Shown here: one piece after another, positions 1,119-63,075 of the stretch
How the letters are laid out: every line of letters starts with the position of its first letter
Position numbering within the stretch: position 1 is the stretch's first letter
Assembly (NCBI GenBank): GCA_029582155.1
Contig: CM055902.1
Location: 19,829,748 to 19,893,747, forward strand
Length of the DNA stretch: 64,000 nucleotides
Source: Panopea generosa
Lineage: Eukaryota; Mollusca; Bivalvia; Adapedonta; Hiatellidae
Direction of reading: 5' to 3'
Position numbers and translations under genes: made by a program
Notes under the pieces: generated by a model
The model's input: only the letters and a program-made list of their open reading frames with translations
Database searches by the model: none
What the model was told of the DNA's origin: nothing

Positions 1119-4100
1119 CGAGGGGTATTCAATAAGTTTTTAGACTGACTTTATGGAATACGACTAAAGCTGATTTACGGCAAATTTCTTATATCAATCC
1201 TTCAAAATATTCTCCCTTCACAGAAATGCACTTTTCCATCCGAGATATCCATGACCTGAACACCGCAGAGTAGTCTGCCCTTGGTATACTCTGCAGACAC
1301 TGATGCACAGCACTGTCAAGGGCGACTCTGGAGCTGTAGCGACACCAAGCAAGTATCTTCTGCAGACACTGATAAACAGTACTGTCAATGGCGACTCTGG
1401 AGCTGTAGCGATGCCCAGAAAGCATTTTCTGCAGACACTGATACACAGCACTGTCAAGGGCGACTCTGGAGTTGTAGCGACACCCAGCAAGCATCTTCTA
1501 CAGACACTGATACACAGCACTGCCAAGGGCGAATCTGGAGCTGTAGCGACGCCCAGCAAGCATCTTCTGCAGACACTGAAACACAGTACTGCCAAGGGCG
1601 ATTTTGGAGTTGTAGCGACAACCACCAAGCATCTTCTACAGACACTGATACACAGCACTGCCAAGGGCGAATCTGGAGCTGTAGCTACACCCAGCAAGCA
1701 TCTTCTGCAGACACTGATACACAGCGCTGTCAAGGGCGATTCTGGGGCTGTAGCTACACCCAGCAAGCATCTTCTACAGACACTGAAACACAGTACTGCC
1801 AAGGGCGATTTTGGAGTTGTAGCGACAACCACCAAGCATCTTCTACAGACACTGATACACAGCACTGCCAAGGGCGAATCTGGAGCTGTAGCTACACCCA
1901 GCAAGCATCTTCTGCAGACACTGATACACAGCGCTGTCAAGGGCGATTCTGGGGCTGTAGCTACACCCAGCAAGCATCTTCTGCAGACACTGATACACAG
2001 CACTGTCAAGGGCGATTTTTGGGCTGTAGCGACACCCAGCAAGCATCTTCTGCAGACACTGATAAACAGTACTGTCAAGGGCGACTCTGGAGTTGTAGCA
2101 ATTCCCAGCAAGGATCTTCTGCAGACACTGATACACAGCACTGCCAAGGGCGGCTCTGAAGTTGTAGCGATGCCAAACAAGCATCTTCTGCAGACACTGA
2201 TACACAGCACTGTCAATGGCGATTCTGGAGTTGTGGCGATGCCCAGCAAGCATCTTCTGCAGACACTGATACGATACACAGCACTGCCAAGGGCGACTCT
2301 GGAGCTGTAGCAATGCCAAGCAAGCATCTTCTGCAGACCCTGATACACAGCACTGCCAAGGGTGACTCTGGAGCTGTAGAGACACCCAGCGAGCATCTTC
2401 TGCAGACACTGATACACAGCACTGCCAAGGGCGACTCTGGAGTTGGAGCGATGCCCAGCAAGCATCTTCTGCAGACACTGATACACAGCACTGCCAAGGG
2501 CGACTCTGGAGCTGTAGCGACACCCAGCAATTATCTTCTGCAGACACTGATACACAGCACTGTCAAGGGCGAATCTGGAGTTGTAGCGACACCCAGCAAG
2601 TATCTTCTGCAGACCCTGATACACAGCACTGCCAAGGGCGACTCTGGAGCTGTAGCGACGCTCAGCAAGCATCTTCTGCAGACACTGATACACAGCACTG
2701 TCAATGGCGATTCTGGAGTTATAGCGATGCCCAGCAAGCATCTCCTGCAGACACTGATACACAGCACTGCCAAGGGCGACTCTGGAGCTGTAGCGAGGGC
2801 GACTCTAGGGCTGTAGCGATACCCACCAAGCATCTTCTGCAGATATGCTACACAACACTGCCAATGGCGACTCTGGAGCTGTAGCGATGCCCAGCAAGCA
2901 TCTTCTGCGGACACTGATACACAGCACTGCCAAGGGCGATTTTGGAGTTGTAGCGACACCCAGCAAGCATCTTCTGCGGACACTGATACACAGCACTGCC
3001 AAGGGCGAATCTGGAGTTGTACCGACACCCAGCAAGCATCTTCTACAGACACTGATACACAGCACTGCCAAGGGCGACTCTGGAGTTGTAGCGACACCCA
3101 GCAAGCATTGCCTGCAGACACTGATACACATCACTGTCAAGGGCGACTCTGGAGCTGTAGCGACACCCAGCAAGCATCTTCTACAGACACTGATACACAG
3201 CACTGCCAAGGGCGACTCTGGAGTTGTAGCGACACCCAGCAAGCATCGCCTGCAGACACTGATACACAGCACTGCCAAGGGCGAATCTGGAGTTGTAGCG
3301 ACACCCAGCAAGCATCTTCTACAGACACTCATACACAGCCCTGCCAAGGGCGACTCTGGAGTTGTAGCGACACCTAGCAAGCATCGCCTGCAGACACTGA
3401 TACACAGCACTGCCAAGGGCGATTTTGGAGTTGTAGCGACACCCAGCGTGCATCTTCTGCAGACACTGATACACAGCACTGCCAAGGGCGACTCTGGAGC
3501 TGTAGCGATGCTCAGCAAGCATCTTCTTCAGTACAGGAAAGAGAAAGAAGTCACAGGGACTCAGGTCTTGCAAGTATGGAGGGTGCTGCAATTGTTTGAT
3601 TTTTTGGTCCCACAGATATTGCTGCACAATATTACTCTTGCATGCAGATGCATTGCCATGCGTGCATATGACAGATTATTCTCAAATCAGTCCGTTGGCG
3701 AAGTTCAACGTAACGTTATCAAGTCCCTATCTCTATAAAACTTTCCAGTAACGAATCTGTCAGATACACTGTTTTGTTGTAATCGGTCTTCCTTTCCTTA
3801 GTCGATGTTTATTATTTACCCGTCTTTGTGATTTGAAATAATATATTTCATCACCTGTGAGGAGCTCATTTATTCTTTTTTCAGCATGTTTATACACCTT
3901 TGTAACATTTCGCCCGTTGGGCCTTTTGCTCTTTGGTCAGAAGGTGGATACCCTCCATGCACATATCTTTGATAATTGTGTTTTGTCAGAATAGCGTGAA
4001 CACTTCCCAATGACATACACACTCTATTTGAGAAAATATATTACGCGAGTCCTTCTGCCACCGTGGCATCTTCAGCACCAATGTTCTTAGACGACAATGA

Positions 4101-10444: not shown

Positions 10445-13400
10445 AGGCAGTCATGAACCCTGGATCACACTTCGTATGCTGTTTGTGTGTATTGTATTGT
10501 TATAGTGGCGGTCGTGTATGCTGGATCAACCCCTCGTATATCTCTTGTGTGTATTGTTTTAGTGGCAATCGTGAATGCTGGATCACTTCTTGTCAAATGT
10601 GTGTGTTGCTTTTAAATAGTGATGATCGTGAATGCCGGATAATTGGTCATATAGTTTTGTGTGTACTACTTTTCTGGTGATCGTGAATGCTGTATCACCC
10701 CTCGTATAGAATTTGTATGTATTGTTTTCGTGGGGGTAGTTGATGGTGGATTACCCCTCGTATAGATTGTGTGTGTATCGTTTTAGTGATGGTCATGAAT
10801 GCTGGATCACACATCGTATAGTTTTTGTATGAATTGTTTTAGTGGTAATCGTTAATGTTGGATTACCTTTCGTATAGTTTTTGTATGTATTGTTTCAGTG
10901 GTGGTTGTGAATGCTGGAATAAACCCCTCGTGTAGTTTTTGTATGTATTGTTTTAGTGGTGGTCGTGAATGCTGGATCACCCCTCGAATAGTTTTGTATG
11001 TATTGTTTTAGTGGTGGTTGTGAATGCTGGATAAACCCCTCGTGTAGTTTTTGTATGTATTGTTTTAGTGGTGGTCGTGAATGGTGGATCACCCCTCGTA
11101 TAGTTTTGTATGTATTGTTTTAGTGGTGGTCGTGAATGCTGGATTACCTCTCGTATAGTTTTGTATGTATTGTTTTAGTGGTGGTCGTGACTGCTGGATC
11201 ACCTCTCGTATAGTATTTGTATGTATTTTTTAGCGGTGGTAGTGAATGCTGGATTACCCCTCGTATAGATTGTGTGTGTATCGTTTTAGTGGTGGTCATG
11301 AATGCTGGATCACACCTCGAATAGTTTTGTATATATTGTTTTAGTGGTGGTCGTGAATGCTGGATCACCCCTCGTATAGTTTTTTTATGTATTGTTTTAG
11401 TGGTGGTTGTGAATGTTAGCTAAACCCTCGTGTAGTTTTTGTATGTATTGATTTAGTGGTTGTGAATGCTGGATCATCCCTCGTGTAGTTTTTGTATGTA
11501 TTGTTTTAGTGGTGGTCGTGAATGGTGGATCAACCCTCGTATAGTTTTGTATGTATTGTTTTAGTGGTGGTCGTGAATGGTGGATCACCCCTCGTATAGT
11601 TTTGTATGTATTGTTTTAGTGGTGGTCGTGAATGCTGGATTACCCCTCGTATAGTTTTGTATGTATTGTTTTAGTGGTGGTCGTGACTGCTGGATCACCT
11701 CTCGTGTAGTTTTTGTATGTATTGTTTTAGTGGTGGTCGTGACTGCTGGATCACCTCTCGTATAGTATTTGTATGTATTTTTAGTGGTGGTCATGAATGC
11801 TGGATTACACCTCGTATAGATTGTGTATGTATCGTTTTAGTGGTGGTCATGAATGCTGGATTACACCTCGTATAGATTGTGTATGTATTGTTTTAGTGGT
11901 GGTCGTTAATGCTGAATTACCTTTCGTATAATGTTTGTATGTATTGTTTTAATGGTAGTTGTGAATGCTGGATAAACCCCTCGTGTAGTTTTTGTATGTA
12001 TTGTTTTAGGGGTGGTCGTGGATGCTGGGTCACACCTCGAATAGTTTTGTATGTATTGTTTTAGTTGTGGTTGTGAATGCTGAATCACACATCGTATAGT
12101 TTTTTTATGTATTGTTTTAGTGGTGGTCGTGAATGCTGGATCACCCCTCGTAAAGTTTTGTGTGTATTGTTTTAGTGGTGGTCGTGAATGCTGGATCACC
12201 CCTCGTATAATTTTGGATGTATTGTTTTAGTGGTGGTTGTGAATGCTGGATAAACCCCTCGTGTAGTTTTTGTATGTATTGTGTTAGTTTAGGTCGTGAA
12301 TGCTGGATCACCCCTCGTATAATTTTGGATGTATTGTTTTAGTGGTGGTTGTGAATGCTGGATTACACCTCGTATAGATTGTGCATGTATCGTTTTAGTG
12401 GTCGTCGTGAAGGCTGGATCACCCTTGTGTAGTTTTTGTATATATTGTTTAAGTGGTGGTCGTGAATGGTGGATCAACCCTCGTATAGTTTTGTATGTAT
12501 TGTTTTAGTGGTGGTCGTGAATGCTGGATCACCCCTCGTATAGTTTGGTATGTATTGTTTTAGTGGTGGTCGTGAATGCTGGATCACCTCTCGTATAGTT
12601 TTGTATGTATTGTTTTAGCGATGGTAGTGAATGCTGGATCACCCCTCGTATAGTTTGGTATGTATTGTTTTAGTGGTGGTCGTGAATGCTGGATCACCTC
12701 TCGTATAGTTTTGTATGTATTGTTTTAGCGATGGTAGTGAATGCTGGATCACCCCTCGTATAGTTTTGTATGTATTGTTTTAGCGATGGTAGTGAATGCT
12801 GGATCACCCCTCGTATAGTTTTGTATGTATTGTTTTAGTGGTGGTCGTGAATGCTGGATCACCCCTCGTGTAGTTTTTGTATGTATTGTTTTAGCGATGG
12901 TAGTGAATGCTGGATCACCCCTCGTATAGTTTCGTATGTATTGTTTTAGTGGTGGTCGTGAATGCTGGATCACCCCTCGTATAGTTCTGTATGTATTGTT
13001 TTAGTGGTGGTTGTGAATGCTGGATCACCTCTCGTATAGTTTTGTATGTATTGTTTTAGCGATGGTAGTGAATGCTGGATCACCCCTCGTATAGTTTTGT
13101 ATGTATTGTTTTAGTGGTGGTCGTGAATGGTGGATCACCCCTCGTATAGTTTTGTATGTATTGTTTTAGTGGTAATCGTGAATGCTGGATCACCCCTCGT
13201 ATAGTTTTGTATGTATTGTTTTAGTGGTGGTCGTGAATGCTGGATCACCTCTCGTATAGTTTTGTATGTATTGTTTTAGCGATGGTAGTGAATGCTGGAT
13301 CACCCCTCGTATAGTTTGGTACGTATTGTTTTAGTGGTGGTCGTGAATGCTGGATCACCCCTCGTATAGTTTTGTATGTATTGTTTTAGTGGTGGTCGTG

Positions 13401-14045
13401 AATGCTGGATTACCCCTCGTATAGTTTTGTATGTATTGTTTTAGTGGTGGTTGTGAATGCTGAATCACCCCTCGTATAGTTTTGTATGTATTGTTTTAGC
13501 GATGGTAGTGAATGCTGGATCACCCCTCGTATAGTTTTTGTATGTATTGATTTAGTGGTGTTAGTGAATGCTGGATCACCCCTCGTATAGTTTTTGTATG
13601 TATTGTTTTAGTGGTGGTCGTGAATGCTGGATCACCCCTCGTATAGTTGTGTATGTATTGTTTTAGTGGTGGTCGTGAATGCTGGATCACCCCTCGTATA
13701 GTTTTGTATGTATTGTTTTAGTGGTGGTCGTGAATGCTGGATCACCCCTCGAATAGTTTTGTATGTATTGTTTTAGTGGTGGTTGTGAATGCTGAATCAC
13801 ACCTCGTATTGTTTTTGTATGTATTGTTTTAGTGGTGGTTGTGAATGTTAGCTAAACCCTCGTGTAGTTTTTGTATGTATTGTTTTAGTGGTGGTCGTGA
13901 ATGCTGGATCACCCCTCGTATAATTTTGCGTGTATTGTTTTAGTGGTGGTCGTGATTGCTAGATCACCCCTCGTATAATTGTTGTTGTGTTCGTGAGTGC
14001 TTGATCACCCCTCATATAGTTTTTGTATGTATTGTTTTCGTGAAT
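10445..14045. repeat. 55-bp minisatellite, 3.6 kb
   Basis: Roughly 65 head-to-tail copies of a unit of 55-56 bp containing GTATGTATTGTTTTAGTGGT and GTGAATGCTGGATCACCCCT. Both edges are degenerate and the centre (about 12500-13700) is the most uniform. Two unit subtypes alternate in patches: GTGGTGGTCGTGAATG and GCGATGGTAGTGAATG. Short ORFs on the minus strand inside it are by-products. There is no sign of coding or of unique spacers, so it is not a CRISPR array. Confidence 0.95.
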
Positions 14046-23018: not shown

Positions 23019-24530
23019 TCAGAAAGAATTTCTCTCATCGACAATGACACGGTATGGTTTTGGCCTGTATACGAGACCAGGAATAGGATTCAGGTCAAAT
23101 TTCTCATTATCGTCTTCCCTTCTGAATGTACACCTTTGTAATAGTGTAACGAAGAATATGAAGATCTCCGTCTTTGCTAGCTGCTCTCCAACACATCTTC
23201 GACGACCAAGTCCAAACGGCAGAATATGGGCGCATAACTCCAGGTCAAGCTCGTTTTTATTATTTATCAGACGTTCTGGTCGAAAATTTTCAGGATCTTT
23301 CCAAAATCCCTTATCATGAGCAACTGAGTGAATATTGAACAGCACTACGGTGTTGTTGTTTATGTCAAACCCCTTTAACTTGGTGTCCTTTGTTGTAAGA
23401 TGAGGAACAACAAAAGGCACGATGGATGTCAGTCTCATCATTTCGTGTATTGTAGCATCAACAAATGGAAGATTTGTCCTATCTTCTATTTTCACATTTC
23501 GTCCATTTCCAATGACATCATCGATTTCTCTCTGCACACGTTTTTGTACATCTGGGAATGCACTCATGTACAAAATCATCCATTCTAGTGTCCTGTTTGA
23601 AGTTTCAAATCCTGCACCGAGCAAATCTGTAAGTGTTGCCATAATACGATCCTTTGTTAGCCCAACAGATGCATTCAATTGCTTGCCATTTATATCGGCG
23701 GCTAACAATGCATGCGTGATGTCATCAATATTTTTTTCATCGTATGTTTCGAGATGTTTCTTGATTTGATTGTGTTTTATATATTCAGTCATTTGTGCCA
23801 TATTTATAAATCTTTCGATTTTGCCGGGCATTATATATCTCAGCCAAGGCAAAACATCAAATGGATTGCCGCTTCTTGTAAACTCGATGAACTCGTTAGT
23901 TGATGTAACAATATCCTCTAAGTGTTGCTTTTCTTTGACACTTTCACCTCTACCATACAACACTTGATAAATGACACTACCAACCGCTTCCTGTAAATCA
24001 TCTGCAATTGACATAGGCCTTCCATTACTTTTCATTGTCAAATGTTCTACTAGACTATTCGCTTCTTCGGAAATAAGTTCATACATTAACTTGCTCCGGT
24101 GGTGAGTAAAGACCCTCAATGCGTTTGCTGTGATTTTCCTGTGTAGAAGATATGTTGAATTAAATTCACCAAAACCGAGACTGTCTTCACCATTATTTCG
24201 ATCTTTTAAAATTTGCTGAGTTAAGAACTTTGGTCTTCCAGAAAAAGAGTCGTCTTTGCTTTCAGCTGCTTCCTTTATTGCCTCATAACCATTAAGCACC
24301 ACCGTATCCCAACTTCCCATCCGGATCTTAAACACGTCGCCGTATTTTTCTCTCCATCTTTGAAATGTTTTAGGTGGACATTCTCCAAAAAATGGTAAGT
24401 GCCCGATAATTGGCAGACCCCATGGTCCATTAGGAAATCGCTTATGACTAAATAGCCGTAGCCATTTAACAATGCATAATGCAGCCACAAACGTACATAG
24501 AAATGCTGTTGTTGATGAAACATCCATCAT
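23019..24530 (-). CDS. cytochrome P450, clan 2 (CYP1/CYP2/CYP17-like), intronless
   Basis: A complete 503-residue ORF, the normal size for a microsomal P450. From the N-terminus there is a membrane anchor at residues 8-22 and the proline-rich hinge PNGPWGLPIIG (33-43). The I-helix oxygen-binding block GAGFETS is at 305-311, the K-helix ExxR as EMMR at 363-366, and the PERF-like FRPER at 416-420. The heme loop FGLGRRRCVG is at 439-448 with axial Cys446. The C-helix has HRK at 130-132, with Tyr127 where many family members have Trp. It should be an ER-bound, NADPH-P450-reductase-dependent monooxygenase. The clan-2 style fits xenobiotic or steroid-like substrates, but the substrate cannot be told from sequence. 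The start is the first of two adjacent Met codons. No intron interrupts it, which is unusual for clan 2. A dead copy lies 3.5 kb downstream. Confidence 0.95.
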   Translation of the reverse strand: MMDVSSTTAFLCTFVAALCIVKWLRLFSHKRFPNGPWGLPIIGHLPFFGECPPKTFQRWREKYGDVFKIRMGSWDTVVLNGYEAIKEAAESKDDSFSGRPKFLTQQILKDRNNGEDSLGFGEFNSTYLLHRKITANALRVFTHHRSKLMYELISEEANSLVEHLTMKSNGRPMSIADDLQEAVGSVIYQVLYGRGESVKEKQHLEDIVTSTNEFIEFTRSGNPFDVLPWLRYIMPGKIERFINMAQMTEYIKHNQIKKHLETYDEKNIDDITHALLAADINGKQLNASVGLTKDRIMATLTDLLGAGFETSNRTLEWMILYMSAFPDVQKRVQREIDDVIGNGRNVKIEDRTNLPFVDATIHEMMRLTSIVPFVVPHLTTKDTKLKGFDINNNTVVLFNIHSVAHDKGFWKDPENFRPERLINNKNELDLELCAHILPFGLGRRRCVGEQLAKTEIFIFFVTLLQRCTFRREDDNEKFDLNPIPGLVYRPKPYRVIVDERNSF

Positions 24531-25830
24531 TGTTTACAGTCAATAGTTAAATGAAAATGTAAAATGTATCCCGATTTGGACGCAATCTGATTTGAGCTTA
24601 AACGTAAACAGGTGAAGCATTTGGTTAATATACTTGGTCACGAACGAATTGAATAAACAAATAATTTACCTGTAAGAGGAGATATGTGCCCGTGTTTACA
24701 TTGAGGTTGATGATCACAAATAAGGTTTTATTATGTTTATTGCTGCATACAATAAGTACCTGCTGTAAAACTTTTGACAGTATGATAAAGTATACAATAA
24801 AATATATCAATTCAGTCCTAGTTTAATTTATATTATTTTAGCGCAAACGCAAAGAAATCTCAGATCTTGTATTAGCGCTTCGAGTTTTTTTGTTTTTTTT
24901 TGAGAGGCCATCAAACCTTGTTTATATCCTATATTTATATAGAAATTTTAACCGAGTGTTCGCGGAAATTTCCGAACATTTATGGAAGAACGACTAAACT
25001 ATTGGCGTTATGCCTTTGGTCAGGTCTTCTTCAAATATCTACGATAACATATACAGATAAAAACGCTATATAATTATATGTACAACATATTGTCATACAT
25101 GCACTAACAACTTCATAACCATCTCATTAAATGCAAACATATCTCAGAAACTGATATCTCCAAAATCAGGTTTATTAACCGCCAATAAAAACAGGGCATT
25201 CTATGCCTGTTACACAATCCATAGCAACTGAACGCTTACTTAATAGTGACGCCATTCATGTTCAAACTTTCAGCTTTTTAACGGACCCAGTTGGGAGAGA
25301 GTTGGGTCCATTCTACAGTCTAGTTTTCGTTAATTAATTAATCTATCATTACAAATTTTAACATATTTTATTCAATTTTGCTATAACGCAAACGGTAGTG
25401 AATGGCACTGCAAAACATTTTAATGTTTTTTAAAGAAAATCCTTCAATGATAGTTTTGATTGTTATATTAACAGGAGCTTAGTTATGACTATTGTTCGGT
25501 GAAACTCAATATAATTAGTAATGTATTCTCATCAAACATTGTAGACTACAATCACTACACTGAAGATAGTACAAAGAACGAAAAAGGGTTGTGTTGATTT
25601 GACATTACATGAAGTGTAACAAAATTAAAACGTTCCACTTCTGCTTCGAAATCACCTGTTGAAGACCTACATATAATGTAATAATGATGATGATAATGTA
25701 TTTTTTATTTAAAGAAGTACAGCCACTTAATCTTCCTTAAAGTACTTTAGTAAAACTTTGATTTATTTTACAAAACCATTACTATTTCCTTCAGTTCAGT
25801 TCAAACATACAATTGACAATTGAAAGAAAA
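24531..25830. other. 5' flank of the P450 gene
   Basis: The first ~250 bp resemble the flank of the pseudogene (CCTTGAGGTTGATGAT-type block near 24695 versus 19695). It should hold the promoter, but I see no confident TATA or initiator. The rest is AT-rich with nothing that can be named. Confidence 0.4.
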
Positions 25831-40345: not shown

Positions 40346-41132
40346 GAAATTTTCAGACAGAGCAAAAATGAACTCTTTGTATGTTAGAGACCAAACGATC
40401 ATTGTGATAAAGTGTTTCAAGGAAGAAGTTTAAACCAATGCTTTAAGTCAGATTAGATCATATTGATGATGCTGTAATATTAACCAAAAGGACCATTCTA
40501 TAAAAGGTGAAACCAGCTGGCACTTAAACATACTAAAAGCACTAACAATTTAAAAAGTACTTGTTACTATGGCAACAGAGTTTTGACAATAGCAACAAAG
40601 CATGCAAAGGTCAGGACTTACAAGTGCACATCTGACCTGCCCTTTTTTATCATCTGGAAAAGTACTTCATGTAAAGCTGCAAATGATACAAACATTTGTA
40701 AGATTTTAAAATGGCATGATAATGGGAAACGAAATTGCTGTAACAAGGGAGATGTGGACAAAATTAAACCCCCTCTAAATGTCCAGACATAATTTTTAAT
40801 TATCTTTTTATAGCAACACATATCTTTATATATTGAAAACAAACGAACTGAATACATTGTTGATATCTATCAAAATGTCAAAAAATCATTATTCTCTCCT
40901 ATTTTATCATATTTGAATTTATGTCAAATATACCAGTCAGTGCAGGCTGATGTCAATGAAGAAATCAAGTTTGAAACTTAAAATCAATTTTTTTTAAGCA
41001 TATTCGGCAGAAGTGCATGTCAACAGATAAATTTTCCTTTCATACAGATATATTAAAAGAAAATTTTCATTTTAAAACTACTTTCCAAATTGAACAGTTC
41101 AGTAATTAATATTGATGAATATGAATTAATTG
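40346..41132. other. downstream of ALDH3 last exon c; no exon recognised
   Basis: If the donor-like GTAAAT after exon c is used, a further exon should lie here or beyond, but none is recognisable. The small ORFs at 40583-40857 show no domain. Confidence 0.4.
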
Positions 41133-41277
41133 TTAATTTACCTTCAATAAAACAGCAAACAATGTTCCAAAAAAGAAGTAAGGTGCCAAGGATATTAGAC
41201 CAGTCTTTTTAATGTGCTTTTTTGTGAGCCAGTTCACCCTTATGGCCTTTTGATCAGTAAATGGAGGATAGCGGATT
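41133..41277 (-). CDS. ALDH3 alternative last exon c (hydrophobic tail anchor)
   Basis: 145 bp to the stop TAA, with the best acceptor of the three (TTTTTTCTCTTCAACAG). With AA from the shared exon it gives K, then IRYPPFTDQKAIRVNWLTKK, HIKKTG and LISLAPYFFFGTLFAVLLKV, N. The last ~20 residues are hydrophobic after a basic cluster, the layout of a C-terminal ER tail anchor as in vertebrate ALDH3A2. After ...VLLK there is a donor-like AAG|GTAAAT, so the exon might also splice on. Human ALDH3A2 likewise has an alternative end after its ...VLVK. Confidence 0.88.
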
Positions 41278-42090
41278 CTGTTGAAGAGAAAAAAATTTTT
41301 TGGATACGAGGTCACATGCCATTATTAAAGGGTACATGTATGTTTGTATCTATCACAGCTATTCAAATAAATACCTTACAAGAAGAACTAAGGGTTGTTC
41401 ATAGAGTCAATAGATAACATGCACTACTGCAGACTTAAATACATGACTACGATGAAATCTCGAGAAGAAATTATTTTTCTAAAGGGCTGTTCATCAAATT
41501 CACTGAAGTTAGCTGAAAGCTCTGCAAAGTTAGATTACATATAAAGAGAGTTAAAAAAAGGTATAGGCATTCTGGTGTGGTTAACAAAAAGTCCATAGAC
41601 ACAATTTAACTGATTTCCAGTCTCTAACAACAACCCTCAGTACTGCTTCTACTAAGGAAATGGACTCAAGTGTAATCCATAGAAGTTCTGAGTTTTTTTT
41701 GAGTTACGATAAAATAAACTAGCCGAAACGCCAATGAAGTTCTACTGTATTTATAATTAATTAGAGAATTGATTCTGTTTTGTTGCATTTTGTTTTTTTA
41801 CCATTCGCGAGAGCTTTATTTTCTGCCATTGTCTATGAACATTTTGTTAGTATAAGCAGTTGTTTTACAACACAAAAAGCAAAGCAAAACAATAGCACAC
41901 ATATATATAGCCACAAGAAATAAACACTACCAGTATTTCTTTCTTTTTAAAAACCCGAACTAATTTTACCTTTGAACATGTACCACAGTTTATTTTGTAA
42001 AAAAAACCCACAATTACTATTGTTTTGCAGTTAATTTTGTTATATCCAACATTTACTTTCCATATACCATATGATTTTTTTTAAGACTAA
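41278..42090. other. ALDH3 intron before exon c; no named feature
   Basis: AT-rich with several homopolymer runs. Short ORFs have no domain. Confidence 0.4.
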
Positions 42091-42362
42091 AGTACCACAG
42101 TACATTCGTTATGTAGACTAGATACATTTGTAGACCATTTACATTTCTGTACCACAGTTACATTTTGTTAGGTAGACAAAATACATTTCTGTACCACAGT
42201 TACATTTCTGTACCACAGTTACATTTCTGTACCACAGTTACATTTTGTTATGTAGACAAAATACGTTTGTAGACCATTTACATTTCTGTACCACAGTTAC
42301 ATTTTGTTATGTAGACAAAATACGTTTGTAGACCATTTACATTTCTGTACCACAGTTTACTT
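42090..42362. repeat. compound minisatellite (19 bp and ~60 bp units)
   Basis: ACATTTCTGTACCACAGTT (19 bp) is repeated, interleaved with ACATTTTGTTATGTAGACAA and AATACGTTTGTAGACCATTT blocks. About 7 short units and 4 long blocks. Confidence 0.88.
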
Positions 42363-42661
42363 TGTTAAGAACATCAATTATATTATAATACATTTTTAAA
42401 ATTCACTTTCCCAATTATTTTTGTTATACTTCAAAAGATTTGTTACTTTTTTTAATCTCCCAATATAGATTACCAACATTTAATTTTTATAAATATCTTA
42501 TTTGTTTTTTTCTTTTCTGAATTTCTGCGTAATGAAATGAAGAAAGTGTATAAAACAACCTGAATTAATTATATTTTCAAGATTTAAAGACCATAATTCA
42601 GACAAAAGTTATCTAAATTGCAGTGTTGAAGAATTTGTCTAAAATATTATGATCCAATAAA

Positions 42662-43380
42662 CAAGAGGCCCAAGAATTGCTCTACTGGTGACAGATGAAC
42701 ATTTCAGGATATGTTTTCTGCAGGTTTCTCTTCAACAAATCTTTTAGGAGACCACCATGCAATGCTACAATTAAAATATCTAATGTCTAGGCCTTGAACT
42801 TTCAGAGAAAATGTAAAATTTCGCTTAAAATGTGCTTATAAGCAGGGACATTTGTGGTCGAATCACGCTGGTTCAAGAGCATGTCTGTAATCTTGTGGTT
42901 ACATCACTACTGTGCTAGTTTGGTTAAGATACAATGAAAAATGGGGATGTTATTGTGTCTACAGAAGTTTTCTTATATAACTCTATGTAAAACACTGACC
43001 TTTGTGGAACCCCCAAATTTGATTTCAGGGACCTCAACTCAACAAATCTTTTAAGGGACCTCAATGCAATGCTACATGTAAAATATCTAAGGTCTGGGCC
43101 TCAAACTTTCAGAGAAAATGTTTTTAGAGTTTCTCTTAAAATGTGATTATTAGCCCTGTTGCGGGGGCATTTGTTGTCAGATCATGCTGGTTCAAAAACT
43201 TATTCAAGATCTTGTCCTTATATAACTGCTGTGTAAGTTTGGTTAAGATTTAATGAAAACTGAAGGTTCTATCATGTCTACAAGAGAAAGATTAACAGAC
43301 AGATGACGGACGGACAGATGGATGGAAGACAGACAATTTACCATGACATAAGCCCTGCTGGCCTTTGGCCAGTAAAGCTA
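42662..43380 (+). mobile_element. hairpin-ended non-autonomous element, copy 2
   Basis: Same ends as 36765-38056: CAAGAGGCCCAAGAATTGCT at the left (hairpin partly lost), CTGGCCTTTGGCCAGTAAAG + CTAA at the right. It contains the typical purine-rich AGACAGATGACGGACGGACA stretch before the right end. The interior differs from copy 1, with its own duplicated module (about 42725-42900 versus 43025-43210). It lies in the ALDH3 intron between exons b and c. Confidence 0.75.
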
Positions 43381-43651
43381 ACATTGCTGAAAGTTAACAG
43401 ACCCTTTTGACTCATGTGAGCAACATATTTATACTATTAAGATTTTTTAAGAATTTGAAAAATGAAGAATCCATTAAATGTTTTATCAAAGATGTTTCGT
43501 TTTTCATTCCCAAAATCCAAAGGATAGTGCACAGTGCAAACACATGCATATCATCAGATGTCTGTATATATTGGGTATTATATTGTGTATTAAGCCAACC
43601 ATTAGTGTTTCCATGGTAACACAACAGAATAAAATCCTATACCTATACAGG

Positions 43652-43760
43652 TCAGGCGATAGTGCAAGATCCTGTCTCACTATTCCTCGGCTTTTTCGCA
43701 TGTCCTTGTAAAATTTTGATGGCAGTCATCTTGCCATTTGTGAACGGTGGATAGCGGACA
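43652..43760 (-). CDS. ALDH3 alternative last exon b (CAAX-type end)
   Basis: 109 bp to the stop, preceded by GGTAATTGTTGTAG. With AA from the shared exon it gives N, then VRYPPFTNGKMTAIKILQGH and AKKPRNSETGSCTIA, stop TGA. The last four residues CTIA fit a CAAX prenylation signal, preceded by a basic stretch (KKPR). Mammalian ALDH3B enzymes end similarly (CTLL) and are lipid-anchored. This isoform is therefore predicted to be lipid-modified and membrane-attached; that is inference from the motif. Confidence 0.85.
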
Positions 43761-44029
43761 CTACAACAATTACCGACTACATTTACAGATAATTAAGAAA
43801 GTATTGAAGGTCATTTTGTTTGATAATCTGCAGCTCAAAGGTCATACAATGTCACAATATGTACGTAATGCATTCAGAGAAATATTTATTGTTAGTAGTC
43901 CAGCTAGTGTAACATATTGCATGTCTCTAAGAAACCTTTTAATGATTTTTATAGACAGCAGATCGGATATCCAAATAATAACAAAACTGTCCATTCACGA
44001 CTTATTTGATCAGGCTAGCAGTCCAGCTA

Positions 44030-44090
44030 GCTCAGGTGGTAAAGCATTCACCTTGTCAGGGAAAGGGTTCACAATTGCTTCATATTTTTC
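44030..44090 (+). mobile_element. tRNA-like SINE head, fragment
   Basis: GTCCAGCTAGCTCAGGTGGT has a good A box (TAGCTCAGGTGG), and GGGTTCACAATTGC resembles a B box with the wrong last bases. The anticodon arm does not fold cleanly, so this is a SINE fragment and not a tRNA gene. It lies in the intron between exons a and b. Confidence 0.55.
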
Positions 44091-44462
44091 TCTCTGAAAG
44101 GTAGCGTACAAACTGTGACATAATATACCACATTCCAAAGGCACGTACAGTGTACATGGTGTCACTCATAAATTTACATCTGTAGTAACCAATGAACAAA
44201 GCTATGATTCTGTTTCCTTCATTTGCTTACCAATTATCTCCCCTGCACTGAATTATTGTTATTACATAAATACACCACCTAAATATCTGAAAGCTAAAGT
44301 CACAATAACATATCAACATATCAACAACAGTTTCTTTCACATGCTTGTATGAACATGGGACAAAACAATACAAGTACTGTGCTGTGTGTTAGTGCAAGGT
44401 AGGCATTTGTAAGCATGGGAAAAAAACAGAGTAGCTGTTACTGAATAAGCGTTACCTTCAAA

Positions 44463-44571
44463 TCACCAGAAATATGACAGAATCCCTCCAGATGATTTGG
44501 GTTTCTTTCCATAACCTAAAAGCCAGTCTATGACTGTTTTCTTTTTATCGGTGAACGGTGGGTACCTGATC
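44463..44571 (-). CDS. ALDH3 alternative last exon a (no membrane motif)
   Basis: 109 bp to the stop, preceded by AATATTGATAG (weak polypyrimidine tract). With AA from the shared exon it gives K, then IRYPPFTDKKKTVIDWLLGY and GKKPKSSGGILSYFW, stop TGA. RYPPFT is the conserved ALDH3 C-terminal block, so this is a genuine ALDH3 end and not a chance ORF. The basic tail has neither a CAAX box nor a clear transmembrane segment, so a cytosolic or weakly associated form is inferred. It is exactly as long as exon b. Confidence 0.85.
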
Positions 44572-45009
44572 CTATCAATATTTCAAACACTGCTTAGCAA
44601 ACAGAATACATTTCCTATGTCATAGACAATTAAAGGGACGAGTACAGATAAAGCATCAAGATTCATACATAGTATGCCAGCGACCAGAATGTTCACATAT
44701 TTTATTTTAATTTTCACTGATCATTTAATTTTTCAAATTTTGCTGACAAACTCTCAACTCTGGAAAAATATAAATAAATATGCTTATACTGACAAATGTC
44801 AACAACAGATTAGGTAGATAATGGAAACAGGTGTATATTGGCTCTTGGTGGTTTTAATCAGATGGGCTTATGAACTTGTCTGAATTCAATCAATGACATT
44901 TTGACTTGACCCTACACCAGTGAACACCAACAGCTCATCCTTTTTTGTCAGTACACCGTGTCAGTTCGGGAACATCTCCTAGATACTAGTATTATAGTTA
45001 TATATGCAT

Positions 45010-45620
45010 TGACTGGTGAGGATCCAATGAGAACTCTAGTACTTGAGTAACCATAAGGTCAAATTAAGCATTTTTTTACAATTAAAGGGCCACAACTCAA
45101 ATATTTATTATCCAATTTGGCCATTTCAAGAACTTATTTGAAATATTATGGTTATATAAGTATTGCATAAGTTTGGTGAGGATCCATTGAGAACGCGGAT
45201 ACTTAAGTGTACAAGGGTCAATTAATTTTGACGATTCAAGGGTCACAACTCTGACATTAATTGCTGATTTGGCCATTTTGAGAAGACAAAATTACTGTGG
45301 TGAAGACCAAATGAAAACTGAAGTATTCGACAATTGCCAACATTAATCATCCGATCTATTGGCCAATTAAAAAATTTATAATCATTATCCTATTTGACCA
45401 GTTCCATAACTTGCCCAAGATATTGTGGCATTTATGTAAATGTAGTGTAAGTTTTGTGAAAATCCAATGAAAACGCAGGTGCTAGAATGCATACAACATA
45501 AAAGTTAACAGGGTGCATCTGAATAGCTTGTTTTGGGCTTTGCTTATGTTGTATAACTTCTGTATAAGTTTAATGGGGGTGAAATGAAAAATACACACTG
45601 GTGAAATATAGCAATTTTCA
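45010..45620 (+). repeat. mollusc-type interspersed repeat with internal modules
   Basis: The phrase family AAGGGCCACAACTC / AAGGGTCACAACTCTGACAT and GGTGAGGATCCAATGAGAAC recurs three times (about 45020, 45170 and 45300-45480). It is non-coding and sits in the intron before exon a. Confidence 0.5.
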
Positions 45621-46059
45621 ACATTCAAGGGCAGCAACAGCAGGGCTTTTGCTTGCACTCTTCAGAACGGGGTCGAGGTCCCTGGCTTCGGGAAAATAAT
45701 CGTTATTTTTAAAGAAATTGGGAAAATGACATAGCACAGGTTTCTTCAATATACGAAACAATATATGAAGGGCTGACGGATGAATGTGGCTATGCTATAT
45801 CGGCAAAATACTCTGATTTTTTTTTTTCTGTTTAGAAAAAAAATTTTTTTTTAATGATTTTTTAAACATGTTTTGGAGGTAATGGCGCATGCATTGACAC
45901 GTAACATTTAAGATTTGCCAGGGCTTGTAAATGTGAATATTAATAGGACTGTTGCAATATGTTTTGATGTTCCACAATGCAAAACACAAAATAAAATTAT
46001 TTCTCTCATTTTGAAGAGTTGAATGATTTAACAATATGTGACTAACAATTTAACAGGAG

Positions 46060-46225
46060 GTTGGTATTACTGCGGGTAGTGTGTTGGCCGCTCGTGCCAG
46101 AAGTGAAGGGTTTAATCCCGGGTTCAATCATCTCAAAAACAACGGTCTGTACTGGCTCAACCAAGGAAAAAGACTCGATCTAGTCATTCATATAAGCTTG
46201 GATTTTTATCCGCAGTTTGCCAAAA
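46060..46225 (+). mobile_element. SINE family C, plus copy of an inverted pair
   Basis: Head TTACTGCGGGTAGTGTGTTG, then GGCCGCTCGTGCCAGAAG and B-box region TTTAATCCCGGGTTCAATC. The body CAACGGTCTGTACTGGCTCA and ATATAAGCTTGGA matches the other copies. It faces the minus copy 37 bp away. Confidence 0.7.
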
Positions 46226-46261
46226 ACTGAATAAATGTTGTTAACGGTACACATTAATTAG

Positions 46262-46475
46262 CGTTCCGCTTTCTGTAGACGTTAGTTTATACTAATTTAT
46301 TTGAGCTTGATTGCGATGAAAGCTCAGAGCTTATATTAACCGCTCTTGAGTCCGTTTCCTGGGTAGAACCAGTACTGAGTGTTGTTTTATAAGAGGCATG
46401 AAGTCGATCAAGGATTGAACCCACAACCTCTGGCATGAGTGGCTAACTCTCTATCCATTACACTACCGCCCCGCT
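46262..46475 (-). mobile_element. SINE family C, minus copy
   Basis: Read on the minus strand, the head is GGGGCGGTAGTGTAATGGAT, with TTAGCCACTCATGCCAGAGG and B box GGTTGTGGGTTCAATCC. Then come CAGTACTGGTTCTACCCAGG and ATATAAGCTCTGAGCTTTCA, tail CTCAAATAAATTAGTATAAA. It is the best-preserved head of this family in the window. Confidence 0.85.
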
Positions 46476-46683
46476 TTTTTTTTTCATAAAACATTGTAAC
46501 AAAATATTAAAGTGCATGATCGTGAATGGATGAACGATCAATACAAAAAACTAAGACACAAATGAATGAATAACTATTATACTTAATGAATTAATGAATA
46601 ATGCATGAGCAATATGATGATTATCAAATGATTGAATGAATGAAAAAAGTGACGGGAAATATCTGTTAATTCAATATATCGAA

Positions 46684-46963
46684 GCCGTGCGCGATTAGAT
46701 CAGTCGGTTACGCGTTTGACTATCAATCCAGGGGTCATGAGTTCGAATCCGCGCCCGGCAACAGTCTCAGTGATGATTGATATACGACATTGTGTCTCAT
46801 TATCATTCGTCTTTCATCACTGATTCAAGTGGGAAAGTTATCAGTTACTTGCTGAGATGGGGTGTGCTCGAGTACTGGTTAATCCAGGAAACAGTGGTTA
46901 GGTTAACTGATCGTCTGTTAGCCCTCGATAGCATAAAATGATGCTAAATATTCAATCAATCAA
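46684..46963 (+). mobile_element. SINE family B, full copy with 13-bp target duplication
   Basis: tRNA-like head GCGCGATTAGATCAGTCGGT, B box GGTCATGAGTTCGAATCC, body GATTGATATACGACATTGTG and CTGATTCAAGTGGGAAAGTT, end GATGCTAAATATTCAATCAA. The perfect duplication TCAATATATCGAA flanks it (46671-46683 and 46964-46976), so the insertion is recent. Confidence 0.93.
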
Positions 46964-47103
46964 TCAATATATCGAAATTCTATATTGTCATGTTATGTTT
47001 GTGTGTATATGCATAAATAATAAATTGGTCATTAATCTTGGGTAAAAAAAACAATAATTCTTGATCTTGCAGAAAATATACCAGTAGGTATTTATATACT
47101 TAC

Positions 47104-47233
47104 TTGTTTACAGACTCCATTTTTAAATCCCTCTCCATGCACGCCCGCTTGTGTGAAAAGGCTTCAACTGAGAATCTGCCATGGTAGCTGCCAGTGCCAC
47201 TGTTACCCACACCACCAAACGGAAGAGATGGTA
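47104..47233 (-). CDS. ALDH3 exon: PFGGVG block, last shared exon
   Basis: 130 bp, acceptor CCATATTTTAG, donor GTAAGTATAT (strong). Encodes [20 protein letters not shown] then [20 protein letters not shown] and VN. It ends in phase 2 (AA), so the final codon depends on which last exon follows. If the donor is ignored, the frame stops at once (AAG TAA), which would give a minimal protein ending VNK. Confidence 0.95.
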
Positions 47234-47557: not shown

Positions 47558-49131
47558 ATCTGACATGGGATTGGCACATTCTATCAACCTCAGTACATAT
47601 CTGATATGACACATTCTAACCAAATTGGTATATATCTGACATGACACATTATAACCAACCTCAGTATATATCTGACATGACACATTCCAACCAACCTCAG
47701 TATATATATCTGACATGACACATTCCAACCAAACTTGGTTTATATCTGACATGACACATTCCAACAAACCTCAGTATACATCTGACATGACACATTCCAA
47801 CCAACCTCAGTATATATCTGACATGACACATTCCAACCAACCTTGTTTTATATCTGACACGACACATTCCAACAAACCTCAGTATACATCTGACATGACA
47901 CATTCCAACCAACCTTGGTTTATAGCTGACATGACACATTCCAACCAACCTTGGTTTATAGCTGACATGACACATTCCAACCAACCTTGGTTTATATCTG
48001 ACATGACACATTCCAACAAACCTCAGTATATATCTGACATGACACATTCCAACCAACCTTGGTTTATATCTGACATGACACATTCCAACAAACCTCAGTA
48101 TTTATCTGACATGACACATTCCAACCAACCTCAGTATATATCTGACATGACACATTCCAACCAACCTTGTTTTATATCTGACACGACACATTCCAACAAA
48201 CCTCAGTATACATCTGACATGACACATTCCAACCAACCTTGGTTTATAGCTGACATGACACATTCCAACCAACCTTGGTTTATATCTGACATGACACATT
48301 CCAACAAACCTCAGTATATATCTGACATGACACATTCCAACCAACCTTGGTTTATATCTGACATGACACATTCCAACAAACCTCAGTATATATCTGACAT
48401 GACACATTCCAACCAACCTCAGTATATATCTGACATGACACATTCTGACAAACCTCAGATATATGACATGGCATATTCTAACCAACCACAGTATATATCT
48501 GACATGACACATTCTGACAAACCTTGGTTTATATCTGTCATGACACATTCCAACAAACCTCGGTTTATATCTGACATGACACATTCCAACCAACCTCAGT
48601 ATTTATCTGACATGACACATTCTGACAAACCTCCGATATATCTGACATGGCATATTCCAACAAACTTCAGTATATATATATGACACGACACATTCTAACA
48701 AACCTCAGTATATATATCTGACACGACACATTCTAACAAACCTCAGTATATATATCTGACACGACACATTCTAACTTACCTCAGTATATATATCTGACAC
48801 GACACATTCTCACCAACCTCAGTATATATATATCTGACACGACACATTCTAACTAACCTCAGTATATATATCTGACACGACACATTCTAACTAACCTCAG
48901 TATATATATCTGACACGACACATTCTCACCAACCTCAGTATATATATCTGACACGACACATTCTAACTAACCTCAGTATATATATATCTGGCACGACACA
49001 TTCTCACCAACCTCAGTATATATATATCTGACACGACACATTCTAACTTACCTCAGTTTATATATCTGACACAACACATTCTAACTAACCTCAGTATATA
49101 TATTTGACACGACACATTCTCACCAACCTCA

Positions 49132-49177
<46 letters not shown>

Positions 49178-49748
49178 ATCTGACACGACACATTCTAACT
49201 AACCTCAGTATATATATATATCTGACATGACACATTCTCACCAACCTCAGTATATATATCTGACACAACACATTCTAACTAACCTCAGTATATATATATC
49301 TGACACGACACATTCTAACTAACCTCAGTATATATATCTGACATGACACATTCCAACTAACCTCAGTATATATATCTGACATGACACATTCTCATCAACC
49401 TCTGTATATATATATATATATATATATCTGACAAGACACATTCTAACCAACCTCAGTATATATATATCTGACAAGACACATTCTTACCCAACCTCAGTAT
49501 ATATATATATCTGACACGACACATTCTAACCAATCTCAGTATATATATATGACACGACACATTCTAACTAACCTCAGTATATATATCTGACACGACACAT
49601 TCTAACTAACCTCAGTATATATATCTGACAAGACACATTCTCACCAACCTCAGTATATATATATCTGACAAGACACATTCTAACCAACCTCACAATATAT
49701 ATATCTGACACGACACATTCTAACCAACCTCAGTATATATATATATCT
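47558..49748. repeat. 36-bp minisatellite in an ALDH3 intron
   Basis: About 58 copies of a unit around TCTGACATGACACATTCCAA + CCAACCTCAGTATATA. In 47715-48683 the units are exactly 36 bp and so stay open in frame on both strands, giving spurious ORFs up to 322 codons. From 48660 to the end the (TA)n part of each unit expands variably (longest 49133-49170) and TGACATG changes to TGACACG. The array fills two thirds of the intron between the exons at 50556 and 47104. Confidence 0.95.
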
Positions 49749-50555: not shown

Positions 50556-50671
50556 TGGAGGCTTGCATCAAGCTATCATTTACACACACACCTCCAGATG
50601 ATACGTTCTCTATCAGTTTCTGTGTCACACTGCGGTTGGTGGAATATATGTAAAACGCAAGTGGTTTTTCC
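50556..50671 (-). CDS. ALDH3 exon: SSGGV..ND segment
   Basis: 116 bp, acceptor CAATTTCAG, donor GTAAGT. Encodes EKPLAFYIYSTNRSVTQKLI then ENVSSGGVCVNDSLMQAS. Its donor lies only 15-17 bp from the tRNA-like head of a SINE (50239-50538) inserted in the same orientation in the following intron. It ends in phase 1. Confidence 0.95.
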
Positions 50672-52928: not shown

Positions 52929-52999
52929 CCATCCACTATATAGGATATGGCCTCATCAACATTTGCAACAGGAATTATGGGTAAAAGTGGTCCAAATAT
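52929..52999 (-). CDS. ALDH3 exon: IFGP block
   Basis: 71 bp, acceptor TTATTTTACAG, donor GTAAGC. Encodes IFGPLLPIIPVANVDEAISY then IVDG. The preceding exon supplies MESE, giving the E[EX]IFGP motif that contacts the cofactor ribose. It ends in phase 2. Confidence 0.95.
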
Positions 53000-54087: not shown

Positions 54088-54220
54088 CTCAGATTCCATG
54101 ATGGGGTCTGTAAAGGTAACATCTGATAGGACAGTTGGTGCTATAAACCTTTCAGATTCAATCATGTCTCCACCGGTAACAACTGTTCCTTTTGTCTCGT
54201 CCAATAGTTTCTTTATTCTC
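54088..54220 (-). CDS. ALDH3 exon: substrate-side segment
   Basis: 133 bp, acceptor CTATTACAG, donor GTATAA. Encodes RIKKLLDETKGTVVTGGDMI then ESERFIAPTVLSDVTFTDPI and MESE. The IAPT[VI]L..V block is conserved in the family. Phases match on both sides. Confidence 0.95.
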
Positions 54221-55233: not shown

Positions 55234-55337
55234 TGAAAATGTCTATCATTAACTATTCTACCATAATCAGGGGACTTGGCAGCTCCATCTGGATAAAATT
55301 CTTCCAAAGTTGCTTTAAACTTCTCTACAAGAGCATC
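55234..55337 (-). CDS. ALDH3 exon: helical linker
   Basis: 104 bp, acceptor CTATTTCAG, donor GTAAGT. Encodes DALVEKFKATLEEFYPDGAA then KSPDYGRIVNDRHF, typical of ALDH3 (YGRI[VI]N..HF). It ends in phase 2 (CA of Gln). Confidence 0.95.
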
Positions 55338-57438: not shown

Positions 57439-57565
57439 CTGTGTTTCCTTGGTACACATGATGTAGTCTGGAGCAACACATATCTGGCCAGCGTTCGAGC
57501 ATTTCCCCCAAATAATTCTGTTAGCGACAACTCCAAGATCCGTTCCTTCATCAACATATACAGGA
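57439..57565 (-). CDS. ALDH3 exon: catalytic Cys
   Basis: 127 bp, acceptor CTTTTTTCAG, donor GTGAAA. Encodes SPVYVDEGTDLGVVANRIIW then GKCSNAGQICVAPDYIMC. The Cys of GQICVAPDY is the catalytic nucleophile position. Vertebrate ALDH3s have GQTC[IV]APDY. It joins as AC|T in phase and ends in phase 0. Confidence 0.96.
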
Positions 57566-58306: not shown

Positions 58307-58470
58307 GTTTTGCCGCCAAGTTCAAGAATAACTGGTGTGAGATGCTCGGCAGCTGCCCTGGCAATGATCTTTCCCACCGCAGAACTTCCCGTGTAGAAGA
58401 TGATATCCCATTTCTCCTGCAACAGAGCTGTAGTCTCGGGGATACCTCCGTTGATACACATGATAGCTTC
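58307..58470 (-). CDS. ALDH3 exon: Rossmann GS..VG and ELGGK general base
   Basis: 164 bp, acceptor CTATTTCAG, donor GTGATG. Begins [17 protein letters not shown], then [20 protein letters not shown], the NAD pyrophosphate region, and ends VILELGGKT, whose Glu is the general base. It starts in phase 0 and ends in phase 2 (AC of Thr). Confidence 0.96.
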
Positions 58471-59409: not shown

Positions 59410-59495
59410 CGTGTCAAAGTATTTAGGGAACAATTCTTTCATCAGGCCTGAAGTATTGACACACAGTTCTGACGGTTTAATGACAACACAGTTTC
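59410..59495 (-). CDS. ALDH3 exon: KPSE cofactor-binding block
   Basis: 86 bp, acceptor TTACATTTCAG, donor GTAATA. Encodes GNCVVIKPSELCVNTSGLMK then ELFPKYFDT. The KPSE motif binds the cofactor's adenine ribose in ALDHs. The split Gly codon (G|GA) joins it in phase with the exon at 62940, and it ends in phase 0. Confidence 0.95.
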
Positions 59496-62939: not shown

Positions 62940-63075
62940 CTGCTGCTATAGCGCCCATCATGGGTAACAACGTAGTCTGTATGGGGTAGTTCCATGGCGC
63001 TATCACCAGACTGACACCAAGAGGTTCACGGCGGATGTATACACTGTCCATTATATTCAATAACCCTTTTTTTAC
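62940..63075 (-). CDS. ALDH3 exon (first in window): WNYP block
   Basis: 136 bp, acceptor TTTTACCTAG, donor GTATGG. It reads from [20 protein letters not shown] to PMMGAIAAG. It contains APWNYP, whose Asn forms part of the oxyanion hole in ALDH enzymes and corresponds to about residues 85-130 of an ALDH3 protein. The exon ends in phase 1 (G of Gly). The next exon upstream is outside the window; 63076-64000 shows only intron with a SINE. Confidence 0.95.

What the first reader, a model, noticed from the sequence alone, without database searches (positions are those of the whole stretch)
41133..47233. One ALDH3 catalytic domain with three tandem, phase-matched alternative last exons
Seen: after the last shared exon (donor at 47102-47103, phase 2) there are three separate exons on the same strand. 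Each is preceded by AG, starts with one base completing the split codon, opens with [IV]RYPPFT, and ends in its own stop (44463-44571, 43652-43760, 41133-41277). The tails then differ completely. Known: ALDH3A2 in vertebrates has alternative C-termini that decide its membrane location. Inference: splice choice here routes the same dehydrogenase to different compartments.
Basis: partly seen in the sequence, partly recalled or inferred. Interest (0 to 1): 0.88.

Follow-up and report, generated by a model that had tools for sequence, protein, structure and literature searches.

The report
One clam enzyme, three swappable tails
A clam gene for a fat-aldehyde detoxifying enzyme carries three alternative ending exons, copied long ago from one exon, that would give the same enzyme a membrane-spanning tail, a short greasy aromatic tail or a probable lipid-attachment tail, endings that backboned animals partly divide among separate genes.

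Summary
The three exons are real and at the stated coordinates. They belong to an intact ALDH3 gene of a heterodont bivalve: nine shared exons in the window, two N-terminal exons just beyond it, open frames of 479, 479 and 497 residues. All three start at the same residue and look like old copies of one exon.

Exon C is a transmembrane tail. It probably does not end at 41133: it has a donor after 41142 and a further exon at 40676-40650, matched by a Dreissena protein. Exon A is a short aromatic tail found in several bivalve groups and in a paralog in this genome. Mercenaria and Ruditapes each have annotated isoforms with one core and either tail, so the A/C choice is well supported. Exon B ends in CTIA, a CaaX-like box; it was found once in the genome and in no other bivalve protein fetched, and its use is unproven.

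The exons swap the gatekeeper-helix segment with the anchor, so splicing may change substrate range and location together. Mammalian ALDH3A2 and worm ALH-4 are close precedents, but there the transmembrane helix is shared. No RNA was examined.

The parts
62940..63075 (-). ALDH3 exon E1 (VKKGLLN...WNYP...AAG)
   Evidence: GT-AG and frame
59410..59495 (-). ALDH3 exon E2
58307..58470 (-). ALDH3 exon E3 (ELGGK)
57439..57565 (-). ALDH3 exon E4 (GQIC, catalytic Cys)
55234..55337 (-). ALDH3 exon E5
54088..54220 (-). ALDH3 exon E6
52929..52999 (-). ALDH3 exon E7 (IFGP)
50556..50671 (-). ALDH3 exon E8
47104..47233 (-). ALDH3 exon E9, last shared exon, phase-2 donor at 47103-47102
44463..44571 (-). Alternative 3' exon A: IRYPPFTDKKKTVIDWLLGYGKKPKSSGGILSYFW*, short aromatic tail
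   Evidence: bivalve relatives; paralog copy
43652..43760 (-). Alternative 3' exon B: VRYPPFTNGKMTAIKILQGHAKKPRNSETGSCTIA*, ends in a CaaX-like box CTIA
   Evidence: one full-length match in the genome
41142..41277 (-). Alternative 3' exon C: gatekeeper segment plus transmembrane helix (GLISLAPYFFFGTLFAVLLK), donor at 41141-41140
41133..41141 (-).
40650..40676 (-). Probable terminal exon D after C: LYMKYFSR*
   Evidence: Dreissena LYMKTF
43885..43943 (-). ATTAAA and AATAAA after exon A: possible polyadenylation signals, at a density I judge ordinary for AT-rich DNA (no control was run)

Best explanation
An intact bivalve ALDH3 (fatty-aldehyde dehydrogenase type) gene whose last exon was duplicated in tandem. 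The shared donor at 47103 can be joined to A, B or C+D. Each exon supplies the gatekeeper-helix segment beside the substrate entrance plus a different end: C+D a tail-anchored transmembrane helix (as in ALDH3A2), A a short aromatic tail that probably lies in a membrane or lipid-droplet interface, B a CaaX box that would be prenylated (as in vertebrate ALDH3B1). Weak acceptors at A and B against a strong one at C suggest regulated choice. Shown: gene structure, intact frames, homology of the exons, relatives of A and C, A/C isoforms annotated in other clams. Inferred: use of B, prenylation, compartments, change of substrate range, regulation.
Confidence: 0.6

Rival explanations
1. Only A and C+D are used. 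B is a local duplicate of A that is decaying or silenced, and its CTIA ending is accidental.
For: B has one full-length match in this genome and was not seen in the 40 kb fetched around the paralog, where 637 bases separate A from C; no B-type tail in 23 named bivalve records; a CaaX-like ending has a chance of about 0.5% by composition, small but to be weighed against my having looked at three tails for any motif; B's acceptor is weak; 7.7 against 3.3 changes on B-only codons.
Against: B stays open, in phase and the same length as A and paralog A with no indel although synonymous sites are near saturation; pN/pS 0.40 against A (p 0.0015) and 0.49 against paralog A (p 0.012).
Confidence: 0.28
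2. A and B make soluble cytosolic enzymes. The switch is membrane-bound (C+D) against soluble, with the swapped gatekeeper segment changing substrate range, and A's aromatic end folds back onto the protein.
For: A has no helix long enough to span a membrane: best 19-residue Kyte-Doolittle window 0.13 against 1.96 for C. ALDH3A1 also has only a short tail after RYPP.
Against: The aromatic ending recurs, with 2 to 6 aromatic residues in the last 9, in 11 of 11 class members that I had picked, more than expected of a mere stub; B ends in CaaX.
Confidence: 0.3
3. Exon C can itself be terminal (VN*), giving a fourth variant beside C+D by intron retention, comparable to the ER and peroxisome forms of ALDH3A2.
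For: The VN* frame is open; FALDH forms differ after the transmembrane helix; Sinanodonta P0013 stops at ...LFQVH and unnamed P0053 at ...LLKV, near the same point.
Against: 11 of the 12 named bivalve transmembrane-tail records run on beyond that point, and Dreissena reads LYMKTF. The donor 41142|gtaaat and the acceptor before 40676 fit. P0013 is labelled partial.
Confidence: 0.15

Closest known systems
Mammalian ALDH3A2 (FALDH) ER and peroxisome splice forms
   Same: One ALDH3 gene whose alternative 3' ends decide the membrane address (passages of PMC5450235); a splice joint right after the transmembrane helix, as here between C and D (inferred there from forms that share the helix and differ in the tail).
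   Different: The FALDH forms share the transmembrane and gatekeeper helices; here both are exchanged.
Caenorhabditis elegans ALH-4 isoforms A, B, C (PMC8291716, passages)
   Same: Three C-termini from one ALDH3 gene reach different organelles.
   Different: Its three C-termini follow a common transmembrane helix; none replaces it with an aromatic or CaaX tail.
Vertebrate ALDH3B1/ALDH3B2 (prenylated paralogs)
   Same: A CaaX box ends a tail that starts with RYPP: 86 of the 113 proteins first listed (best 120 of 334 matches) end in C-x-[ILVMTAF]-x; geranylgeranylation of ALDH3B2 is needed for lipid-droplet location (review passages).
   Different: There it is a separate gene; here it is one of three exons. 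From RYPP to the end tail B has 34 residues, turtle P0139 28.
Annotated isoforms of bivalve ALDH3 (Mercenaria, Ruditapes and others)
   Same: A-type and transmembrane tails on one core.
   Different: No B-type tail among the fetched representatives.

Membership tests
ALDH3 (class 3 aldehyde dehydrogenase) | Sequence belongs with class 3 aldehyde dehydrogenases | tested here: met
   Exon E3 alone matches ALDH3A1/FALDH chains best. Pfam Aldedh was run on the relatives P0002 and P0006, not on the window protein. The window core is 61-67% identical to the heterodont ALDH3 proteins compared and falls among them in a tree.
ALDH3 (class 3 aldehyde dehydrogenase) | Catalytic residues: Asn of WNYP, Glu of ELGGK, Cys of GQxC | tested here: met
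   WNYP, LELGGK and GQIC are in the assembled protein; these positions are invariant in an alignment of 49 relatives. Their catalytic roles are recalled.
ALDH3 (class 3 aldehyde dehydrogenase) | Enzyme activity on aldehydes | not testable with these tools
   No assay.
Alternative last exon (splice-selected terminal exons) | Two or more terminal exons in the same phase after one donor | tested here: met
Alternative last exon (splice-selected terminal exons) | More than one form present in RNA | not testable with these tools
   No RNA of this species; A and transmembrane forms are annotated isoforms in two venerid clams.
Tail-anchored ALDH3A2-like form (C+D) | Single C-terminal hydrophobic helix of about 20 residues | tested here: met
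   Kyte-Doolittle 1.96 over 19 residues; fits transmembrane tails, z 17.2. Insertion itself not tested.
CaaX prenylated protein (B) | C-a-a-X at the very C-terminus | tested here: met
   CTIA*. The second residue is Thr, not aliphatic; the rule as printed gives X = Ser, Cys, Gln or Met for farnesyl and Leu or Ile for geranylgeranyl (passage). X = Ala as a farnesyl site is recalled.
CaaX prenylated protein (B) | Lipid attached in the cell | not testable with these tools
   Needs labelling or mass spectrometry.
Vertebrate ALDH3B subfamily | Orthology to ALDH3B rather than to other ALDH3 | tested here: not met
   In the tree vertebrate 3A2 and 3B1 group together (93/62) and with Ptychodera (98/94), while the window gene sits with bivalves. 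So B works like, but is not, an ALDH3B.

The most novel reading that the evidence does not exclude
One protostome ALDH3 gene performs by splice choice what vertebrates share out among paralogs: a transmembrane form, a CaaX-prenylated form and an aromatic-tailed form, each with its own gatekeeper segment, so that address and substrate range change together. The CaaX tail arose by duplication of the aromatic-tail exon, convergently with vertebrate ALDH3B.
Probability: 0.42. Interest if true: 0.7.

Novelty: new variant of a known kind. Interest (0 to 1): 0.57.

Why it matters
ALDH3A2-type enzymes clear reactive fatty aldehydes at membranes, and mutations of human ALDH3A2 cause Sjogren-Larsson syndrome (passages). 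A gene that swaps gatekeeper segment and anchor as one cassette would be a natural experiment on how location and substrate preference are coupled, and a case where splicing in one lineage parallels gene duplication in another. The aromatic tail, recurring in several bivalve groups, is a candidate membrane- or droplet-binding motif; I found no description of it in the listings of searches.

Tried and rejected
Pseudogene or chance: rejected, since the eleven shared coding exons are open with splice signals and tails A and C have relatives. Read-through origin of the A tail: unlikely in Mytilus, where A-type (M. edulis P0015) and transmembrane (M. trossulus P0014) tails differ from just after RYPPYT on cores 439 of 442 identical. 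Recent exon duplication: rejected, because the 300-base flanks score below the best of 100 shuffles in all comparisons and the exons themselves score about at that level in DNA. An earlier flank comparison (A with B, 600-base flanks) compared overlapping sequence and was discarded. Phage blast of exon C gave 7 records with short chance-level matches.

Papers (passages only): PMC4133159 on Drosophila names an ALDH-III isoform Q and nothing on C-termini. PMC11718799 on Sinonovacula lists one ALDH3 of 481 residues and no isoforms in the passages seen. PMC9478949 on Arabidopsis G6PD5 concerns N-terminal variants. Keller 2014 (PMC4109017) is not held, so the gatekeeper facts come from the review PMC8160307. 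Kitamura 2015 and Ashibe 2007 were seen only as cited references.

Not obtained: a structure of a transmembrane-tail protein; whole-genome searches with the full protein, tail A and tail C. Only exon E3 and tail B were searched genome-wide, each with 3 candidates scored, so further ALDH3 loci are not excluded.
Full report
What is there. The minus strand of the window carries most of an ALDH3 gene. Nine exons (63075-62940 to 47233-47104) join with GT-AG signals into one open frame. The window lies at C9:19829748-19893747 of a 1.47-Gb assembly. Two more exons, the first with an ATG, lie just beyond the window (L007 3109-2942 and 2289-2194, minus strand). With the tails the frames are 479 (A), 479 (B), 491 (C ending VN) and 497 residues (C+D), each with a single stop, at the end. 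WNYP, ELGGK and GQIC are present. The host is a heterodont bivalve by this protein: of 12 relatives compared, Mya is nearest at 67.3%, then an unnamed record, Mercenaria 65.5%, Mactra 65.3% and Dreissena 65.1%, and a tree of 35 rows places it inside that clade (100/99 for a set of 13 rows). The species was not determined.

The three exons. All coordinates of the finding hold. A and B are each 109 bases; C is 136 bases to its donor. A and B are 15 of 35 identical without gaps, A and the paralog's A 18 of 35. C differs in length but shares IRYPPFTD and the pattern after it. I read the three as copies of one old exon. DNA similarity is nearly gone and the flanks show none, while protein similarity remains.

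C needs a correction. At 41142 the sequence is TTGAAG|gtaaat, and cag|CTTTACATG follows at 40676; joined they read VLLK-LYMKYFSR*. Dreissena P0006 ends VLLKLYMKTF, and Mercenaria P0004 ends NFFSR after a longer stretch. Against this, Sinanodonta P0013 (labelled partial) stops at LFQVH and unnamed P0053 at LLKV, close to the VN position; the other 11 of 12 named bivalve transmembrane tails run on.

Relatives. One search listed the best 120 of 7809 matches. Of these, 23 carry a bivalve name in the truncated label: 9 with an A-type tail (P0001, P0002, P0011, P0012, P0015, P0020, P0021, P0028, P0084), 12 with a transmembrane tail (P0003-P0008, P0013, P0014, P0017, P0035, P0044, P0045) and 2 with neither (P0032, P0091). 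I sorted them by eye. None has tail B; P0032 has Cys at -4 in an ending without RYPP. Mercenaria X7 and X3 share 440 of 441 core residues, Ruditapes X6 and X2 441 of 441: in each case one gene, two tails. Among the 117 proteins of the list with a RYPP-type motif, 17 have 36 residues or fewer from it to the end, including a Lingula form ending WAYSLF.

Class tests. For each window tail I compared the part after RYPPFT with members that I chose from the listings (13 transmembrane, 5 of them unnamed; 11 aromatic, 2 unnamed; 14 CaaX, 1 unnamed) against 300 shuffles. A: aromatic mean score 46.8 (z 10.1), transmembrane 13.1 (z 5.6), CaaX -7.0 (z 2.5, reached by 3 of 300). C+D: transmembrane 91.2 (z 17.2), aromatic 15.4 (z 7.0), CaaX -13.8 (z 1.7, 20 of 300). 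B: CaaX 7.6 (z 4.7), aromatic 1.3 (z 4.0), transmembrane -13.4 (z 1.5, 22 of 300). So A and C are clear; B lies between the CaaX and aromatic classes, as expected if it was copied from A and then changed its end.

Constraint, by Nei-Gojobori counts. A with paralog A, 27 codons: pS 0.76, pN 0.19, Fisher p 9e-6. A with B, 24 codons: 0.78 and 0.31, p 0.0015; over all 35 codons 0.82 and 0.45, p 0.001. B with paralog A, 24 codons: 0.70 and 0.35, p 0.012. I cut the shorter regions before the diverged ends. A with C over 24 codons gives 0.63 and 0.43 (ratio 0.68), B with C 0.65 and 0.51 (ratio 0.78), where ungapped pairing is doubtful. Codons changed only in B hold 3.3 synonymous and 7.7 non-synonymous changes, codons changed only in A 2.5 and 1.5. 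No indel separates A, B and paralog A. Counts are small and synonymous sites near saturation, so this supports A firmly and B moderately.

The paralog. A second ALDH3 locus 25 Mb away on the same contig groups with the window gene (89/88, below the tool's starred level). It keeps an A exon (IRYPPYTDKKMSTIAWVQGSGKNPKSPGFFSFLWS*) and a transmembrane exon whose frame is broken just after RYPPF, the rest being readable in another frame. That may be a real loss or an assembly error. No B-like exon was seen in the 40 kb fetched. Genome-wide, tail B has one full-length match, the window; the other two matches are window A and paralog A, at E 0.037 and 0.59.

Addresses. C+D: a hydrophobic segment, GRAVY 1.83, with a +3 tail after it; tail charge steers FALDH between ER and peroxisome (PMC5450235, passages). 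B: CTIA; the CaaX rule and the need for geranylgeranylation of ALDH3B2 at lipid droplets come from PMC13314531 (passages), which cites Kitamura 2015 on two C-terminal tryptophans and lipid modification; I did not see that paper. By composition a CaaX-like end has a chance of about 0.5%. A: aromatic ending, by loose analogy with those tryptophans.

Comparison. Worm ALH-4 and mammalian ALDH3A2 vary after a common membrane helix, and each worm isoform alone rescued the mutant. Vertebrate 3A2 and 3B1 group together with modest support (93/62), apart from the protostome rows (98/94), so the bivalve gene is no nearer to 3B1 than to 3A2 and the CaaX box of B may be convergent. Ten paper searches, read as listings plus passages of seven papers, showed no report of transmembrane, aromatic and CaaX exons in one ALDH3 gene; the library lacks most subscription papers.

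Verdict. A/C switch real with about 0.9; B functional about 0.6; the full three-address model 0.4 to 0.5. A new variant of a known kind.

Noticed in passing
window 23019-24533, minus: Single open frame of 504 residues, nearly the whole cytochrome P450 profile (Pfam p450 positions 1-461 of 462, E 1.5e-97).
   Followed up: partly
window 47575-49740: 36-base minisatellite of about 59 copies in the intron before the last shared exon.
   Followed up: no
window 10488-13985 and 1290-3531: Long tandem arrays: 55-base unit, 63 copies; 69/207-base units with open frames on both strands.
   Followed up: no
L005 (paralog locus, about C9:44988900): The paralog's transmembrane exon has a broken frame just after RYPPF while its aromatic-tail exon is intact: possible division of tails between two gene copies, or an assembly error.
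   Followed up: partly
window gene as a whole: The window copy has a longer end branch (0.36) than its paralog (0.16) in the tree.
   Followed up: no
P0095: Unnamed record with a CaaX tail among the hits; its best match is lungfish ALDH3B1, so it is probably from a vertebrate.
   Followed up: yes
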